Source: Promethearchaeota archaeon
Lineage (GTDB): Archaea; Asgardarchaeota; Lokiarchaeia; Sigyniarchaeales; SOKP01
Direction: 5' to 3'
Length of the DNA stretch: 64,000 bases
Assembly (NCBI GenBank): GCA_019058365.1
Contig: JAHPZE010000011.1
Coordinates: 1-64,000 of the forward strand
Shown piece by piece: positions 7,375-64,000 of this stretch. The notes beneath the pieces are model-generated. The model did no database searches. It saw only the letters and a list, made by a program, of their open reading frames with translations, and was not told where the DNA came from. A program made the position numbers and the translations under genes. Position 1 is the stretch's first letter; each line of letters opens with the position of its first letter.

Positions 7375-7929
7375 TTAGTAAACAAGAATCTTATCAAAAA
7401 TTGTATAGATTGTTGTTTTATAAATTTCAAAGAAAATCCCTTCTGGAATCAACTTTTTAACCTTTTGAATCAATTCCTGAATACTGTCTTCAGTAAGATC
7501 GGTGTGAATTTCCTTCAAATCAGGATCATATTTATGAAGAAAAATAGAAATATCTAAATCTAAATTCTTTTGTTGAATTTTTTTTAAAATATTTTCTAAG
7601 TATTTTAAAGCTAAGTCATATCGTTGGATATCTTGAATATCAATAACAAATATAATTTTAGAACATCCAGTAATATAGGGTTCAAAATTCTCTAAATATT
7701 CTTCTCTATAATTCTCTTGACCACCTAAATCCCAAATATTAAATTTTGAGTCAACAGATTCAAAGTCAATAATATTGGGACCAATAGTTGGCGTTAATGA
7801 CAAATAATTAAGTAAATTCATTTTACCAATAATACTAAGAATTATTGATGATTTTCCAGAATTATCGAGACCAGCAATTATAATTTTTTTATAAGGTTCT
7901 GAATTATTTTTACTTGTAAGATTTGACAA
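7375..7929 (-). CDS. Arf/Rag-like small GTPase
   Basis: G1 GLDNSGKSS, switch Thr in LTPTIGPN, G3 WDLGGQE, G4-like HKYDPD. Confidence 0.88.
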   Translation of the reverse strand: MSNLTSKNNSEPYKKIIIAGLDNSGKSSIILSIIGKMNLLNYLSLTPTIGPNIIDFESVDSKFNIWDLGGQENYREEYLENFEPYITGCSKIIFVIDIQDIQRYDLALKYLENILKKIQQKNLDLDISIFLHKYDPDLKEIHTDLTEDSIQELIQKVKKLIPEGIFFEIYKTTIYTIFDKILVY

Positions 7930-54399: not shown

Positions 54400-54834
54400 C
54401 TAGAGATAGTTAAACCAATTAAACCAATTAAACCATTGAAAGAACAAGAAATAAAATAACAGGAAACAAACGAAATCAAATATCCCTAAAACTATTCCTA
54501 TCATTGCTATTGCATTATTCTCATCTCTGCCTATTCCAAGACCACCTAAAATTATTGCAGCTATTCCTAAAACAGGAGCGATATAAAAAGCACCACAAAA
54601 GATACCAATTAATGCGGAAATTACTGCTGCTATTCCATAATTATTATCTCCGCTGGAACTAAATGGTCGTTGATATGGCCGTGTTTGAATTGTCTGAGGC
54701 AGTCTCGTTATCTGTGGTTGCTGTAGAGGCTGTGATTGTGGAATTTCTGTTTCTTTTAGAATCTTTCCGCAATTTGGACATGCATTCCATAATTCTTCTA
54801 CTTCACTACCACAATTTGTACAATACGGACTCAT
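54400..54834 (-). CDS. Zinc-ribbon protein with hydrophobic C-terminus
   Basis: YCTNCGSEVEELWNACPNCGK, then TM segments; C-terminal FFQWFNWFNWFNYL. Confidence 0.7.
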   Translation of the reverse strand: MSPYCTNCGSEVEELWNACPNCGKILKETEIPQSQPLQQPQITRLPQTIQTRPYQRPFSSSGDNNYGIAAVISALIGIFCGAFYIAPVLGIAAIILGGLGIGRDENNAIAMIGIVLGIFDFVCFLLFYFLFFQWFNWFNWFNYL

Positions 54835-57701: not shown

Positions 57702-57992
57702 TTAATATTCTAGTTTCTTAATGATCTTATATGTTTTAAATTCTCGAACGGGCTCATCCTTTTCATTTAGACGCTCAACTGGAACTCTAACATAATTTTC
57801 ATCATCAAATTCTTCAATTTCAGCTTCCTTATATTTAGCCATATTATCAGCTAGTTTCAACTCTCTAAGCAAGAAGTCTCTTACAGCTACTCTAATTAGT
57901 TCTGATCTAGAGGGATATAACCCATTTTCACCCACTAATTTTTCAATACTATCAATATACGATTCTGGAATGTTAACAGTAACAATTTTCAT
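57702..57992 (-). CDS. Ribbon-helix-helix (CopG/NikR-type) regulator
   Basis: MKIVTVNIPESYIDSIEKLVGENGLYPSRSELIRVAVRDFLLREL. Confidence 0.88.
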   Translation of the reverse strand: MKIVTVNIPESYIDSIEKLVGENGLYPSRSELIRVAVRDFLLRELKLADNMAKYKEAEIEEFDDENYVRVPVERLNEKDEPVREFKTYKIIKKLEY

Positions 57993-58422: not shown

Positions 58423-58619
58423 CATATTTTAAACGAATATTGTAAATATTCTCTTACTTATTCAGGCAATAATAGAAATAAAACATACAGTAATACTTTT
58501 ATCTAACAAAATTTCTTGATAATCCAACTATTTCATAGTTTTTAGAATGTTATGATATTCTTAGCAAAATAAAAGAACGCCTTTAACTTTATTTCAAACA
58601 AATAATCTTAATTCAAATA

Positions 58620-58632
58620 AATTTTTATATAC
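58620..58632 (+). promoter_or_regulatory. Candidate archaeal TATA element (TTTTTATATA) upstream of 58697 gene
   Basis: AAATTTTTATATACAATCC about 65-75 nt before the TTG start. Confidence 0.3.
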
Positions 58633-58696: not shown

Positions 58697-60109
58697 TTGT
58701 CAGAACAGAAATTATTTCAAGTTTTCGTTAATAAAATAGAATTTGATCCCGCTGAATACTTAGTATCAAGCAAAGAGCATGAGCTTACTGATTTTCAGAA
58801 AAAAACGATCGAAAGTGCTACTTCTATAATGAAAGAAAATATAATTGGAGAAATTCAATCATTTGGAGGAAATCTCAAAACAAATGAAGAGAAGGTAAAA
58901 GAACTCGAAAATAAGGTTAACGAAGAATTAAAAAACGAGGAATATGAAGATTTAAAGAAAGATTTGAAGAATTACAGTAAATTATTACGGGAAATAATTG
59001 AAAAGACTTGTGTCGTAATAATTCCTGTAAAAGAAATGCCTTGGGTTAATGTATTATTTCGGACAATTCCTCGAATAATTTTTAACAAGAGATTAGAGCT
59101 TTTAGATAATGCAATTGCTTATTACGGTGAAATCAAATGTGTTATTTCACGCCCAACAATCTTTGGAAAAATGAAAGACGAAAAACCATTATTCGCACCA
59201 ATTATGGGACCTATTGATTTAGGGGGGTATAAACTGGATAAATCTCAAACAGATCCTAAATCTCAAATCTACTCTTATATAAGCGCAATAATTAATTCTT
59301 TTGATTCAATAATAACAAAAAACCATCTCGCAAAATATCATGAAGGTTATCAAAGACATGGTGATCCTATTTGTGATTTTTTAATGAAAAATAATGAATT
59401 AATGAATTCAATGGAAAAAGTCACTTCTGGTATCGAATCAAATCGACTTTCATCAGATATTGCTATCTTTAGCATAGCAATCCCTCACACTAATGAAAAG
59501 ACTACTTTATTATTAGTTACAGATGAAGGTAAAGATCCAAGTAAATATTCAAGGTGTTTTGAAGCGCTCTTAAGATTTTCTGCTGAAAGCTGTAATGTCC
59601 CAGCTCAACAACCCCAAACGCCTGGACAAGTAATTCCTCCCTCCCCTGGAGCAGTTAGAACTCCTGGGGGACAAGAACTTAAAACTTGGACAGCTAAAGA
59701 GTTAACAGAAGAAGCAGAAAAAAGAATGTCCTCTCAGCCAGATATTCCTACTTGGACTGAAGATGATTTAACAAAATTCGCAGGTGAGAGAGGAACAGGA
59801 TTACCTGAAGGAATGGAGTTCTGGACTGAGGAAGAATTGCAAGAATTATCAAAAAAGCGACAAGGGGGTTTAGATATACCTGAATGGAAATTAGATGATA
59901 ACATGAGAGAATGTACTAAATGTGGTTATAGTTTAAGACCTGGATGGAGCAGATGTCCTGTTTGCGAGACTCCAGTAGGTGCTAAGCCAGAATCAGAACC
60001 CATTGAGCAGCCCATTCCAGAACTAAGTGAAGATTCAGAAGAACAGCCTGTTGAAAAGACAGAAGAAGATCTTTCACAGGATAATGAGGACGAAAAAGTG
60101 GATCAATAA
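58697..60109 (+). CDS. Multidomain protein with repeated WTxEEL linker motifs and C-terminal zinc ribbon (TTG start)
   Basis: N-terminal helical domain; linker TWTAKELTEE / TWTEDDLTKF / FWTEEELQEL; CTKCGYSLRPGWSRCPVCETPVG; acidic tail. Confidence 0.7.
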   Translation: MSEQKLFQVFVNKIEFDPAEYLVSSKEHELTDFQKKTIESATSIMKENIIGEIQSFGGNLKTNEEKVKELENKVNEELKNEEYEDLKKDLKNYSKLLREIIEKTCVVIIPVKEMPWVNVLFRTIPRIIFNKRLELLDNAIAYYGEIKCVISRPTIFGKMKDEKPLFAPIMGPIDLGGYKLDKSQTDPKSQIYSYISAIINSFDSIITKNHLAKYHEGYQRHGDPICDFLMKNNELMNSMEKVTSGIESNRLSSDIAIFSIAIPHTNEKTTLLLVTDEGKDPSKYSRCFEALLRFSAESCNVPAQQPQTPGQVIPPSPGAVRTPGGQELKTWTAKELTEEAEKRMSSQPDIPTWTEDDLTKFAGERGTGLPEGMEFWTEEELQELSKKRQGGLDIPEWKLDDNMRECTKCGYSLRPGWSRCPVCETPVGAKPESEPIEQPIPELSEDSEEQPVEKTEEDLSQDNEDEKVDQ

Positions 60110-60274
60110 TATCATTTATACTTTTTTGTTTACTTACTCAATAGCAAAAGATTGATTGCCTTTCATATTTTAAACCAAAAACTTTAAAAGTAATTAGAAT
60201 CAGCAAGATTCCAAACTTTTTTTAAGGTAGTTTTATTTTCAAACTTATAGGAATTAAGAATTCGAGAAATTTAA

Positions 60275-61273
60275 TTGTTACATAACATCTTTTTATTCAA
60301 AGGAAATGAAATTCAAGATTTAGAAGATCTAAATATTTATTGTTATCCTAATGAAATTATTAGTTTTGATAATAAAATTCTTGTTAATAAAATTATAAAA
60401 GAACATAACAATGTAGATGTTATTCAGCAATCACCATCAAATCATTTTAAAATTGATGAGCCTATTGCTCAATTTATCGATGATTTAAACATATATACGT
60501 CCTGTGTTAATAGAAAAATTATAATTGGCTTAATTTTTGATAATGAAGATAACCCTTACGATTATAAGGATATATTTAAGGAATTATTGAACGAATTATT
60601 AAACAATGGCAATGGATATTCCTTTAATGAAGAAATTGAAGTTGAAAATTTATTAATTTCTATATTTATTGATATTCGTAGGTTTTATGATGAGGTTATT
60701 GAAAAACCTCCAGAAATTGAATATTATTATCAAAGGGACGCATTTTTCAAAGTCTTCCTCTTCGGTATTGATGAAGTTGGAAAATCTAGCTTAGTAAGAC
60801 GGTTAAAAACGGGCAAGTTTAACGATAATTTCTTTACTCCAACACGGAAATTCAATATTGAATATATACCTGCAGAAGAAAAAGGATTATTTGCTGTATG
60901 GGACATGCCGGGGCAAAAAACTTTCAGATCAAAATGGTTAAAAGGGCTTCAAGATTCTAACATTATTATTTATATGATTGATATTGCTAATCAAAGAAGA
61001 TTTGAGGAATCTAAAAAAGAGTTTTGGAATGTCATAAATAATAATGAATTAAGAGCAATCCCATTACTATTAGTATGTAATAAAACTGATTTAGTCATAA
61101 ATGCTAGGGAATCGTATAAAAAAGAATTTCACAACTTAAAGAAACAACTTTCAGAATTTTTTAATTTAAATAAAATAAAAGATCGAAGGTGGAAATTCTT
61201 ATTTACTTCAGTAAAAACCAATTATAATATCGATAATATAATTCCAGCGATTTTAACTTTGTTATCTCCCTAG
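60275..61273 (+). CDS. Arf-like small GTPase with about 150-residue N-terminal, possibly longin-like, domain (TTG start)
   Basis: G1 GIDEVGKSSL, TPTRKF, G3 WDMPGQK, G4 CNKTDL, G5 FTSVKT. Confidence 0.85.
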   Translation: MLHNIFLFKGNEIQDLEDLNIYCYPNEIISFDNKILVNKIIKEHNNVDVIQQSPSNHFKIDEPIAQFIDDLNIYTSCVNRKIIIGLIFDNEDNPYDYKDIFKELLNELLNNGNGYSFNEEIEVENLLISIFIDIRRFYDEVIEKPPEIEYYYQRDAFFKVFLFGIDEVGKSSLVRRLKTGKFNDNFFTPTRKFNIEYIPAEEKGLFAVWDMPGQKTFRSKWLKGLQDSNIIIYMIDIANQRRFEESKKEFWNVINNNELRAIPLLLVCNKTDLVINARESYKKEFHNLKKQLSEFFNLNKIKDRRWKFLFTSVKTNYNIDNIIPAILTLLSP

Positions 61274-61436
61274 ATTGCTAATTAAAAAGCATTATTTGAA
61301 TAAAAAATTCTTAATTCTAATAATTTTAGTGTTTTGATGAAGTAAACATTAAATTTAAATATCTCGCCGTTTAAATTTCTATTATTGAAATAAAAACTTA
61401 ATATTTCTCTTATTAACGGTTAACTCGTGATAAAGC

Positions 61437-62030
61437 ATGTCTAAAAGACTTAAAAAAGAATTACAAATTATGATTGATGAGAAAGTAGGGCAATTATTTT
61501 TTGGTGATAAAAAGAAAGATTTACGTTTACTTATGTTAAGACCTATTGATTTAATTGAATTCTCCGAATTCGCTGGTGCAAATGCAGATGACATACTTAT
61601 TTGGGTAGGGAAAACTCTTGGAAGGGCATATATGGAAAAATTCTTCTACAATAAAGATTGGAGTTCAGAAAATCTAGCAATAAAAAAAGATGTTATTCTT
61701 GGAAACCTTGAAGCGTTAGAACTTATGGGTTATGGAGGAATAACAGGAGTGTTTAAAAAAGATTATGTGTTAATTAAAGTTTCAGATTCACTAGCAAAAG
61801 AAGAATCTGATAACATTATGGCTAAAAATCTTTGTCTACTTTATCAAGGGATTTTTCTAGCATTGTTTGAGACTTTGTTAATTGATGTTAATGGCGAGGA
61901 GATCGAATGTGTTTTACTAGGACATGAAAAATGCGTGTTCAAATTTAATTTTATTGGAAAAGAATTAGATGAAAGCCTTATAGATGAGGAATCCGAAGAA
62001 ACAGTTTCAGAATTTTTATCTACCCTTTAA
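61437..62030 (+). CDS. V4R-domain protein
   Basis: LELMGYGGITGVFKKDYVLIKVSDSLAKEES...NLCLLYQGIFLALFETLLIDVNGEEIECVLLGHEKCVFKF. Confidence 0.7.
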   Translation: MSKRLKKELQIMIDEKVGQLFFGDKKKDLRLLMLRPIDLIEFSEFAGANADDILIWVGKTLGRAYMEKFFYNKDWSSENLAIKKDVILGNLEALELMGYGGITGVFKKDYVLIKVSDSLAKEESDNIMAKNLCLLYQGIFLALFETLLIDVNGEEIECVLLGHEKCVFKFNFIGKELDESLIDEESEETVSEFLSTL

Positions 62031-62206: not shown

Positions 62207-64000
62207 ATGGAAAAAAGAGGAGCTAGAGTCAAAATAGATGAATACAAAGGTCCTCTCGGTACAATCAAAGGATTTGAACTTACTACTGGGAAAGTATCAT
62301 ATGGAGATGAGACGGAATGGGAACCTATGGGACCAACCCCAATGCCACATATCCCTACATTACGTAATTGGTTTTTCAAACTAATGGAAAGATATCGACC
62401 TTTTTATATGCCAATCTGTGATATGTGCTGTCTCTGCACCTTTGGCAAATGTAACCTTTCTAAAGGCAGAACTGGTGCATGTGGAATAAATATGGAGACA
62501 CAACAAGCAAGAATAGTAGAAATAGCCTGTTGTATCGGAGCTAGTTGTCATTCAGCTCATGGTGATCATCTGCTTCATTGGCTAAAAGAAAAATATGGAA
62601 ATGTCCCAATTGCTTATGGTAATAATATTGAAGTTGAGATGCCTTGTACACGTTTAATTGTTGGTATGAAACCGGAAACTTTGGAAGATCTAGAGACTGC
62701 AATGGAATGGGTGCATTATACGATAACACATTTACTAGCTGCGGGACATACAGGTCAAGAATCAAGCCATTTAGATTATGAAGCTAAGGCTTTTTTAGCA
62801 GGACTAGCTGATGCTGTGGGAATGGAAATTTCTGATGCTGCACAAATTGCAGCCTATGGTTTTCCAATGGGAGAAGCTAATGTTCCACTTATTGAATTAG
62901 GAATGGGTACACTAGATACTAAAAACAAAGCAACGATTTTGATGATTGGACACAATGTAGCACCAGGTATCGAACTAGTTGATTATATGAGGGAAAAAGG
63001 TTATGACGATAAGTTAGATGTGGGAGCGATATGTTGTACGGCAATAGATTTAACAAGATATTATGATGGTGCGAAAATTGTTGGTTCACTAGCTAGACAG
63101 ATGTTTTACATTCGTTCTGGATTAGCTGATGTTGTTATGGTAGATGAACAATGCGTTAATTTACGTAGTTATGAACAAGCAAAGCTCGTAAATGCTCCGT
63201 TTATAGCGACTAATGAAAAAAATATGGGAGGTTTACCTAATAGAACAGATGACCCTCCAGAAGAAATTATTGATGATTTAGTCAGTGGAAAAGTTGATGG
63301 AGTACTAATATTAGATCCAATAAAAGCAGGAAAAGTAGCTGTTGAGACGGCTATTAAGGTAAAACCAATTAGAAAAGCTAAAAGTGCAGTTCCTGATGAA
63401 CAAGGATGTATTGATATGGCAATGAACTGCAATGGATGTGGTAACTGTCAAAGAAATTGTCCAAATGATTTACCATTAGTAGAAGGAGTAAAAAGGGTAA
63501 AAGATGGTGATTTTTCAGTATTAACTGACATTTTTGATCAATGCTTAGATTGCGGACGATGTGAATCAGATTGTATGAAAAATGTCTCACCACTTACTCT
63601 CATAATGTACGCTGGACGTGAAAAGATTAGAAATGAAAAATTTAATATGAGAGCGGGTCGTGGGCCTATTCAAGATGTAGAAATAAGAAATGTTGGAGCA
63701 CCTGTAGTCTTAGGAGAAATTCCTGGAGTCATAGCAATTATTGGTTGTGCTAATTATGCTAAAGAAATACAAGAATTATATTTAATGGCTGAAGAGTTTT
63801 GTAAAAGAAATTACATTGTGGTTGTATCTGGTTGTGGTGCTATGGATATTGGTCTTGTAAAGGATGAAGATGGTAAAACACTTTACGACAAATATCCCGG
63901 TGATTTTGATAGAGGCGGGTTAATAAATGTTGGTTCATGTGTTTCAAATCCACATATTAATGGAGCAGCCATTAAAATTGCAAATATTTTTGCAAGACGC
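62207..64000 (+). CDS. cdhA: CO dehydrogenase/acetyl-CoA decarbonylase-synthase complex alpha subunit, 3' truncated by window
   Basis: CDMCCLCTFGKCNLSKGRTGACGI, CCIGASCHSAHGDHLLHWLKEKYG, 4Fe-4S motifs CNGCGNCQRNCPNDLP and CLDCGRCESDCMKN, IGCANYAKE. Frame open to 64000. Confidence 0.96.
   Translation, partial: MEKRGARVKIDEYKGPLGTIKGFELTTGKVSYGDETEWEPMGPTPMPHIPTLRNWFFKLMERYRPFYMPICDMCCLCTFGKCNLSKGRTGACGINMETQQARIVEIACCIGASCHSAHGDHLLHWLKEKYGNVPIAYGNNIEVEMPCTRLIVGMKPETLEDLETAMEWVHYTITHLLAAGHTGQESSHLDYEAKAFLAGLADAVGMEISDAAQIAAYGFPMGEANVPLIELGMGTLDTKNKATILMIGHNVAPGIELVDYMREKGYDDKLDVGAICCTAIDLTRYYDGAKIVGSLARQMFYIRSGLADVVMVDEQCVNLRSYEQAKLVNAPFIATNEKNMGGLPNRTDDPPEEIIDDLVSGKVDGVLILDPIKAGKVAVETAIKVKPIRKAKSAVPDEQGCIDMAMNCNGCGNCQRNCPNDLPLVEGVKRVKDGDFSVLTDIFDQCLDCGRCESDCMKNVSPLTLIMYAGREKIRNEKFNMRAGRGPIQDVEIRNVGAPVVLGEIPGVIAIIGCANYAKEIQELYLMAEEFCKRNYIVVVSGCGAMDIGLVKDEDGKTLYDKYPGDFDRGGLINVGSCVSNPHINGAAIKIANIFARR

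What the first reader, a model, noticed from the sequence alone, without database searches (positions are those of the whole stretch)
58697..62030. Candidate trafficking-like cluster: zinc-ribbon scaffold, Arf-like GTPase with N-terminal domain, V4R protein
Three same-strand genes: a 470-aa unknown with zinc ribbon, an Arf-like GTPase fused to a roughly 150-aa N-terminal domain with a longin-like feel (CVNRKIIIGLIFDNEDNPYDYKDIFKELLNELL), and a V4R-domain protein. V4R is structurally related to TRAPP Bet3, a core part of a small-GTPase exchange complex in eukaryotes. Co-localisation with an Arf-like GTPase could be a prokaryotic precursor of a GTPase-platform system.
Basis: partly seen in the sequence, partly recalled or inferred. 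Interest (0 to 1): 0.62.

Follow-up and report, generated by a model that had tools for sequence, protein, structure and literature searches.

The report
Lokiarchaeal longin-GTPase and V4R gene trio
In Lokiarchaeia, archaeal cousins of complex cells, three genes stay together (an Arf-like switch fused to a longin-type domain, a relative of the TRAPP subunit Bet3, and a possible scaffold protein), which offers a concrete, testable candidate for an early relative of eukaryotic membrane-trafficking switches, although no biochemical function has been shown.

Summary
In detail: three same-strand genes lie exactly at the stated coordinates in a Lokiarchaeia genome. The 332-aa protein has an intact Arf-type G domain (Pfam Arf 1.5e-28; best solved folds Arl8b and Asgard ArfR). 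Its 150-aa N-terminal domain has no sequence hits, but the AlphaFold model gives the longin topology (b-b-a-b-b-b-a-a). The 197-aa protein is V4R/TRAPPC3-like. The 470-aa protein has an ordered N-terminal region without any solved-structure match, three Trp-helix repeats and a C4 zinc ribbon. The order is kept in about 45 Lokiarchaeia loci (down to ~40% identity), survives changed flanks, and is lost as a block. It is probably not one operon: each gene has its own conserved promoter-like block. In sister families the V4R orthologue sits beside other small GTPases with roadblock domains (MglA-like plus roadblock; roadblock-Rab fusion). This recurrence is the strongest evidence for a GTPase-V4R partnership. 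The putative scaffold has an older partnership with an RHH regulator, a VWA-RING protein and a TPR protein. Trafficking and exchange-factor activity remain unproven. It is not a TRAPP complex.

The parts
58697..60109 (+). ZR: 470-aa putative scaffold/adaptor (TTG start)
   Evidence: orthologues; one full-length copy in each family-f1 genome that has it
58697..59596 (+). ZR residues 1-300: ordered domain with no significant fold match in the PDB
   Evidence: AlphaFold pLDDT 75-94 by ten-residue block over this stretch; Foldseek PDB: no match at E<=0.001; no Pfam family beyond the zinc ribbon
59687..59896 (+). ZR residues 331-400: three W-[ST]-x-[ED]-[ED]-L-type helix repeats plus a fourth Trp, all four Trp invariant
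   Evidence: alignment A2: W331, W353, W376, W397 invariant; short helices 333-344, 355-364, 378-387
59912..59965 (+). ZR C4 zinc ribbon C-x2-C-x10-C-x2-C
   Evidence: C406, C409, C420, C423 invariant; weak Pfam zinc-ribbon hits in 24-26 of 27 members; small RanBP2/NZF-like zinc fingers as weak fold matches
60275..61273 (+). longin::Arf-like GTPase, 332 aa (TTG start)
60275..60700 (+). N-terminal longin-type domain (residues 1-142)
   Evidence: AlphaFold order E2-9 E20-24 H34-42 E64-68 E71-78 E82-88 H94-110 H120-142; no sequence hits
60737..61264 (+). Arf-type G domain (residues 155-330): GIDEVGKSS, switch-I T190, DMPGQ, NKTD, TSVKT
   Evidence: Pfam Arf 1.5e-28; Foldseek Arl8b 8jc5 E 2.5e-14, HodArfR1 8ouk E 1.8e-12; G169, K170, P212, G213, Q214, N269, K270, D272 invariant
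61437..62030 (+). V4R/TRAPPC3-like protein, 197 aa
   Evidence: Pfam V4R 2.9e-7; family profile hits 2osd, TRAPPC3 chains, 7yh3
61833..61934 (+). V4R putative zinc quartet C133, E155, C158, C166
   Evidence: C133, E155, C158 invariant and C166 nearly so in 22 orthologues; three Cys plus one Glu coordinate zinc in V4R sensors (PMC10715001)
61959..62027 (+). V4R C-terminal acidic tail ending in conserved FLSTL
   Evidence: alignment A3; absent in L028/L029 and in the sister-family orthologues
58610..58632 (+). conserved promoter-like block upstream of ZR
   Evidence: AATTCAAATAAATTTTTATAT conserved in most genus members
60170..60226 (+). conserved BRE/TATA-like block plus near-invariant GCAAGATTCCAAACTTTTTTTAAG upstream of the GTPase
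   Evidence: alignment of 15 genus members; one exact copy in the genome
61348..61385 (+). conserved promoter-like block upstream of V4R
   Evidence: alignment of 15 genus members; unique in the window
57702..57992 (-). RHH transcription factor, divergent neighbour of ZR (CdrS-like, below cut-off)
   Evidence: RHH_1 1.4e-7; CdrS 3.5e-10, 39.7 bits against cut-off 100; kept next to ZR in sister family f2
62207..64000 (+). cdhA, CO dehydrogenase/acetyl-CoA synthase alpha subunit (continues past the window); frequent downstream neighbour
   Evidence: TIGR00314 8e-247; near V4R in 26 of 32 loci with room

Best explanation
A small-GTPase regulatory module of Lokiarchaeia. The GTPase is a nucleotide-dependent switch carrying its own longin-type domain. 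The V4R protein, expected to be a zinc-stabilised TRAPPC3-like homodimer with a ligand pocket, is its dedicated regulator or ligand-sensing partner, working through the longin/roadblock surface. The 470-aa protein is an adaptor whose repeated Trp helices and zinc ribbon gather other proteins. Shown here: gene identities, intact G motifs, conserved linkage, separate promoter-like blocks, and recurrence of the V4R orthologue beside other roadblock-equipped GTPases. Predicted: the longin fold. Inferred: the physical V4R-longin-GTPase contact, the direction of regulation (exchange, activation or ligand gating), the scaffold role, and any membrane role.
For: Linkage: ZR->GTPase 40/41 and GTPase->V4R 35/37 loci with room on the contig, reverse 41/41 and 43/43, against V4R->cdhA 26/32. 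Order kept with altered flanks (L083, L088, L099, L100, L103, L109). Block loss with one flank kept in two genomes (L160 upstream, L158 downstream). Recurrence: in f2 the V4R orthologue (36-39% identity) neighbours an MglA-like GTPase plus roadblock gene (L162, L163; a divergent V4R pair in inverted arrangement in L182); in f4 the V4R pair is followed by a roadblock::Rab-like fusion (L164, L165). Longin topology, competent G domain, TRAPPC3-like V4R. Asgard GTPase-longin and longin-TRAPPC3 fusions are reported elsewhere (PMC10933270).
Against: The flanks are largely conserved too, so part of the linkage is shared descent. Separate promoter-like blocks argue against a single transcript. V4R has moved away from the GTPase in two genomes (L153, L154). 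ZR occurs without the other two beside it in sister families, and divergent GTPase orthologues stand alone there. Small GTPases are dense in these genomes (4 of 99 ORFs in 104 kb), so a GTPase neighbour is not rare. No complex could be modelled. The longin assignment rests on one model with pTM 0.53 and no solved-structure match for that domain.
Confidence: 0.48

Rival explanations
1. Two systems lie side by side. ZR belongs to an older set with the RHH regulator, the VWA-RING protein, the TPR/SNAP-like protein, a RagA-like GTPase and, in some lineages, proteasome alpha; the longin-GTPase and V4R are a separate pair that inserted beside it in one family.
For: In f2 and f3 ZR lies with VWA-RING genes and, in most, TPR, RHH or RagA-like genes, but without longin-GTPase or V4R (L146, L150, L151, L152); VWA-RING and TPR orthologues are near ZR in many f1 genomes too; proteasome alpha near ZR in f2, f4 and genus g7.
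Against: ZR and the longin-GTPase occur in exactly the same 29 of 37 family-f1 genomes, though contig breaks inflate this; ZR-GTPase adjacency is as faithfully kept as GTPase-V4R adjacency.
Confidence: 0.25
2. The trio is only inherited synteny of unrelated genes with no functional link.
For: Neighbouring galT-like/nucleotidyltransferase/RHH/cdhA genes are also conserved, and each gene has its own promoter-like block.
Against: Divergence down to about 40% identity with order kept, retention when flanks change, block loss, and independent V4R-GTPase-roadblock neighbourhoods in f2 and f4.
Confidence: 0.15
3. V4R is a ligand or redox sensor serving metabolism (MsvR-like) and is tied to CO dehydrogenase; the GTPase would be an accessory of that control.
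For: Weak MsvR match (28.5 bits against cut-off 220); MetOD1 match; cdhA next door in most loci.
Against: No DNA-binding domain; cdhA is absent next to V4R in several loci that keep the trio; in f2 and f4 no cdhA was seen beside V4R.
Confidence: 0.06
4. The V4R proteins regulate a pilus-like or polarity machine through MglA-type GTPases, and the Lokiarchaeial V4R-longin-GTPase pair is a derivative controlling cell polarity or surface structures.
For: In f2 the V4R pair lies between an MglA-like GTPase with roadblock gene and a T2SSE-type ATPase locus; the V4Rb paralogue stays with T2SSE-type genes in family f1; MglA/MglB control type IV pili in Myxococcus (PMC9481161, abstract).
Against: No pilus-like genes were recognised near the trio or near the f4 V4R pair.
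Confidence: 0.06

Closest known systems
Eukaryotic TRAPP core (Bet3/TRAPPC3, longin subunits, Rab GTPase)
   Same: V4R/Bet3-type protein, longin-type domain and small GTPase are the same three ingredients; V4R is the likely ancestor of Bet3 (PMC2253512).
   Different: Here the longin-type domain is fused to the GTPase, the G domain is Arf-like not Rab-like, there is no separate longin heterodimer, and no exchange activity is known.
Asgard longin::GTPase and roadblock::GTPase fusions and Thorarchaeal TRAPPC3 (PMC10933270)
   Same: Same domain classes in Asgard archaea; the reported MK-D1 architectures include GTPase fused to longin.
   Different: That paper states that MK-D1 GTPase genes do not generally lie in operons with roadblock, longin or TRAPPC3 genes; here a V4R-GTPase neighbourhood is conserved and recurs.
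MglA/MglB (Ras-like GTPase with roadblock regulator)
   Same: PGQ-type switch II as in MglA (from memory), GTPase together with a roadblock/longin-superfamily domain; the f2 V4R pair sits beside an MglA-like/roadblock set.
   Different: The trio's domain is longin-type, fused to the GTPase, with an added V4R and ZR.
Asgard Arf-related GTPases (HodArfR1 8ouk, GerdArfR1 8oum)
   Same: G-domain fold matches.
   Different: The N-terminus here is a 150-aa domain, not an Arf amphipathic helix.
Eukaryotic Rag-Ragulator
   Same: A RagA-like GTPase is encoded about 3 kb downstream of V4R in the same genome.
   Different: No Ragulator-like subunits shown; linkage only.

Membership tests
Arf/Arl GTPases | Ras-type G domain with Arf-type sequence and fold | tested here: met
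   Pfam Arf 1.5e-28; top Foldseek hits Arl8b, Arl10B, Arl3
Arf/Arl GTPases | N-terminal amphipathic helix, usually with myristoylated Gly2, directly before the G domain | tested here: not met
   a conserved 150-aa domain precedes the G domain; so an Arf-like G domain, not an Arf
Longin domain | b-b-a-b-b-b-a-a order without an N-terminal helix | tested here: met
   DSSP order on the AlphaFold model
Longin domain | sequence or fold match to a known longin | tested here: inconclusive
   no longin Pfam match and no PDB sequence match; hhalign to Asgard longin proteins negative; Foldseek list occupied by GTPases
V4R/TRAPPC3 (Bet3) superfamily | sequence-profile match to V4R or TRAPPC3 | tested here: inconclusive
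   V4R 30.9 bits against 31.0; family profile to MJ1460 0.0046 and eukaryotic TRAPPC3 chains 0.008-0.07; probable member
V4R/TRAPPC3 (Bet3) superfamily | zinc-site residues (three Cys and one Glu in V4R sensors; four Cys in Thor-TRAPPC3) | tested here: met
   C133, E155, C158 invariant, C166 nearly so in the f1 family; lost in f2/f4 orthologues; metal binding itself not tested
TRAPP complex | separate longin heterodimer flanked by Bet3-type subunits | tested here: not met
   no separate longin genes in the trio; the one longin-type domain is fused to an Arf-like GTPase
TRAPP complex | guanine-nucleotide exchange activity on a Rab GTPase | not testable with these tools
   needs purified proteins
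MglA/MglB | separate roadblock protein beside the GTPase | tested here: not met
   not in the trio; present beside the f2 V4R pair
RanBP2/NZF zinc fingers (for ZR) | fold match and W-x-C-x2-4-C...C-x2-C signature | tested here: inconclusive
   weak fold hits E 0.6-3; spacing fits but the leading Trp is lacking

The most novel reading that the evidence does not exclude
V4R/TRAPPC3-like proteins of Asgard archaea are dedicated regulators of small GTPases acting through a longin or roadblock surface, with the GTPase exchanged between lineages (longin-Arf, MglA-like with roadblock, roadblock-Rab): a pre-eukaryotic TRAPP-like exchange principle, here with a new Trp-repeat scaffold.
Probability: 0.25. 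Interest if true: 0.85.

Novelty: new variant of a known kind. Interest (0 to 1): 0.55.

Why it matters
Which Asgard GTPase works with which regulator cannot usually be read from the genome; the one structural study held here states that these genes are generally not co-located (PMC10933270). A conserved trio, plus V4R beside roadblock-equipped GTPases in two sister families, names specific protein pairs to test for TRAPP-like or Mgl-like regulation before eukaryotes.

Tried and rejected
Sequence profiles did not link the N-terminal domain to longins. Rfam gave nothing credible. Missing trio genes in G007 and G023 are explained by V4R lying at contig ends, and broken contigs also affect G005 and G029, so these were not counted as losses. 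G030 lacks all three but also the flank orthologues tested, so it was not counted either. The conserved element upstream of the GTPase was tested as a regulon signal: only one exact genomic copy. Single-operon organisation was judged unlikely because each gene has its own conserved promoter-like block. A CODH-linked role was considered and ranked low. The paper search for MopR zinc residues was unproductive. The third fold search was not used.

Full report
OBSERVATION. The three frames exist exactly as described. G000 is the window's own genome (contig C26, 4.74 Mb); relatives carrying ZR are all named Candidatus Lokiarchaeota/Lokiarchaeia. Families f1-f4 and genera g1-g23 below are the anonymous labels of the genome search. 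ZR and the longin-GTPase begin with TTG, V4R with ATG; the start sites are supported by conserved N-termini in alignments A1 and A2.

THE GTPASE. Residues 155-330 are an Arf-type G domain (Pfam Arf 1.5e-28; Ras 8.6e-16) with the G motifs kept across 31 orthologues: GxDxxGK[ST], switch-I T190 (nearly invariant), D-x-PGQ, NKxD and the G5 serine. The AlphaFold model (mean pLDDT 80, pTM 0.53) matches Arl8b, Arl10B, Arl3 and the Asgard HodArfR1 and GerdArfR1 structures. Residues 1-142 are modelled as b-b-a-b-b-b-a-a, the longin order (relative to roadblock, a longin lacks the N-terminal helix and has an extra C-terminal one; PMC10933270). No sequence method reached longins, and Foldseek could not test the domain apart from the G domain, so this assignment is a prediction, about 75% likely in my judgement. 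In one f2 genome (G050) the domain and the G domain are read as two adjacent frames (L039).

V4R. Pfam V4R at 30.9 bits (cut-off 31.0). A broader family profile ranks archaeal V4R MJ1460 first, then a block of TRAPPC3 chains including Thorarchaeal TRAPPC3 (E 0.005-0.3): consistent, individually weak. C133, E155, C158 and C166 are conserved in the f1 family and fit the three-Cys-plus-Glu zinc site of V4R sensors (PMC10715001); the sister-family orthologues have lost it. Most f1 proteins carry an acidic C-terminal tail ending in FLSTL or a variant.

ZR. Residues 1-300 are modelled with good confidence, but no solved structure matches at E<=0.001. A linker with three Trp-helix repeats follows (W331, W353, W376, then W397, all invariant in 27 orthologues), then one C4 zinc ribbon and an acidic disordered tail. 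A multivalent adaptor is the natural reading, but it is inference.

LINKAGE. In a set of 50 loci (the window plus 49), counted only where the contig leaves room: ZR->GTPase 40/41, GTPase->ZR 41/41, GTPase->V4R 35/37, V4R->GTPase 43/43, V4R->cdhA 26/32. Many of these loci are close relatives, so the counts are not independent; nine genera of family f1 carry ZR and GTPase orthologues in the 58-genome searches, with identities down to about 40%. The trio stays together where upstream or downstream genes differ (L100, L109, L083, L088, L099, L103). Two genomes keep one flank but lack all three genes (L160 keeps the upstream flank, L158 the downstream one). V4R has moved in G026 and G012 (L153, L154).

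NOT ONE OPERON. Gaps are 96-204 nt (ZR-GTPase) and 89-178 nt (GTPase-V4R). In the genus, each gap contains a strongly conserved BRE/TATA-like block, and ZR has its own. The reading as archaeal promoters is from general knowledge of the consensus, not from transcript data.

RECURRENCE OF V4R WITH GTPASES. This was looked at after the linkage was found, so it is a fair, if small, test. In f2 (L162, L163) the V4R orthologue and a tandem paralogue follow a roadblock protein (Pfam Robl_LC7 1.7e-7), a 308-aa protein and an MglA-like GTPase; in L182 a divergent V4R pair faces the same GTPase set in inverted arrangement. In f4 (L164, L165) the V4R pair is followed, after about 35-60 nt, by a roadblock::Rab-like fusion (L164: Robl_LC7 1.6e-6, Ras 7e-49). 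With about 4% of ORFs being recognisable small GTPases near the window, an adjacent GTPase by chance is roughly 8% per context; f1, f2 and f4 are three contexts. This estimate is rough.

ZR'S OLDER PARTNERS. In f2 and f3 ZR lies near the VWA-RING gene and, in most cases, the TPR/SNAP-like gene, with the RHH regulator (f2) or RagA-like GTPases (L146, L152), without the longin-GTPase or V4R (L146, L150, L151, L152; families). In the window's own genome these genes follow cdhA beyond the window end: RagA-like GTPase 65181-66389 (-), VWA-RING 66612-67817 (+), TPR 69458-70621 (+). So the biological unit may be larger than the trio, or two units may abut.

MECHANISM. Best reading: the longin-type domain acts in cis, or as a dimer, as the docking surface of the GTPase; the V4R homodimer, perhaps ligand-bound, contacts it and sets the nucleotide state; ZR gathers effectors. 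Steps shown: gene content, conservation, linkage, recurrence. Predicted: folds. Not shown: binding, exchange, membranes.

NOVELTY. The ingredients are known in Asgard archaea (PMC10933270; PMC2253512 for V4R as Bet3's likely ancestor). What I did not find in the papers searched is a conserved V4R-longin-GTPase gene neighbourhood, its recurrence with roadblock GTPases, or the Trp-repeat zinc-ribbon protein. The library lacks most subscription papers, so absence is not proof.

Noticed in passing
57702-57992 (-): Ribbon-helix-helix protein, best NCBIfam match CdrS (haloarchaeal cell-division regulator) below cut-off, also weakly aCcr1; kept as divergent neighbour of ZR even in f2.
   Followed up: partly
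G000:C26 65181-70621 (L059, beyond the window): RagA-like GTPase, VWA plus RING-like protein, and TPR/SNAP-like protein form a conserved neighbourhood with ZR across several families.
   Followed up: partly
60203-60226: 24-nt near-invariant non-coding element GCAAGATTCCAAACTTTTTTTAAG upstream of the GTPase, one exact genomic copy; function unknown.
   Followed up: partly
L179:6910-7398 (G000:C35) and L180, L181, L187, L188: A second V4R paralogue (V4Rb) in Lokiarchaeia sits near a T2SSE-type ATPase and membrane/pilin-like genes.
   Followed up: partly
L106, L108, L189; L146, L148-L150: Proteasome alpha subunit gene near ZR in genus g7 and in families f2 and f4; in g7 also a Rab-like GTPase and a 289-aa protein that looks longin-like by eye.
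   Followed up: no
62207-64555: cdhA (CODH/ACS alpha) is the usual downstream neighbour of V4R in Lokiarchaeia.
   Followed up: partly
7375-7929 (-): Another small Rag/Arf-like GTPase of 184 aa in the window.
   Followed up: no
54400-54834 (-): Small, probably membrane protein with an N-terminal zinc ribbon (Zn_Ribbon_1, weak DUF4190), also found upstream in several related loci.
   Followed up: no
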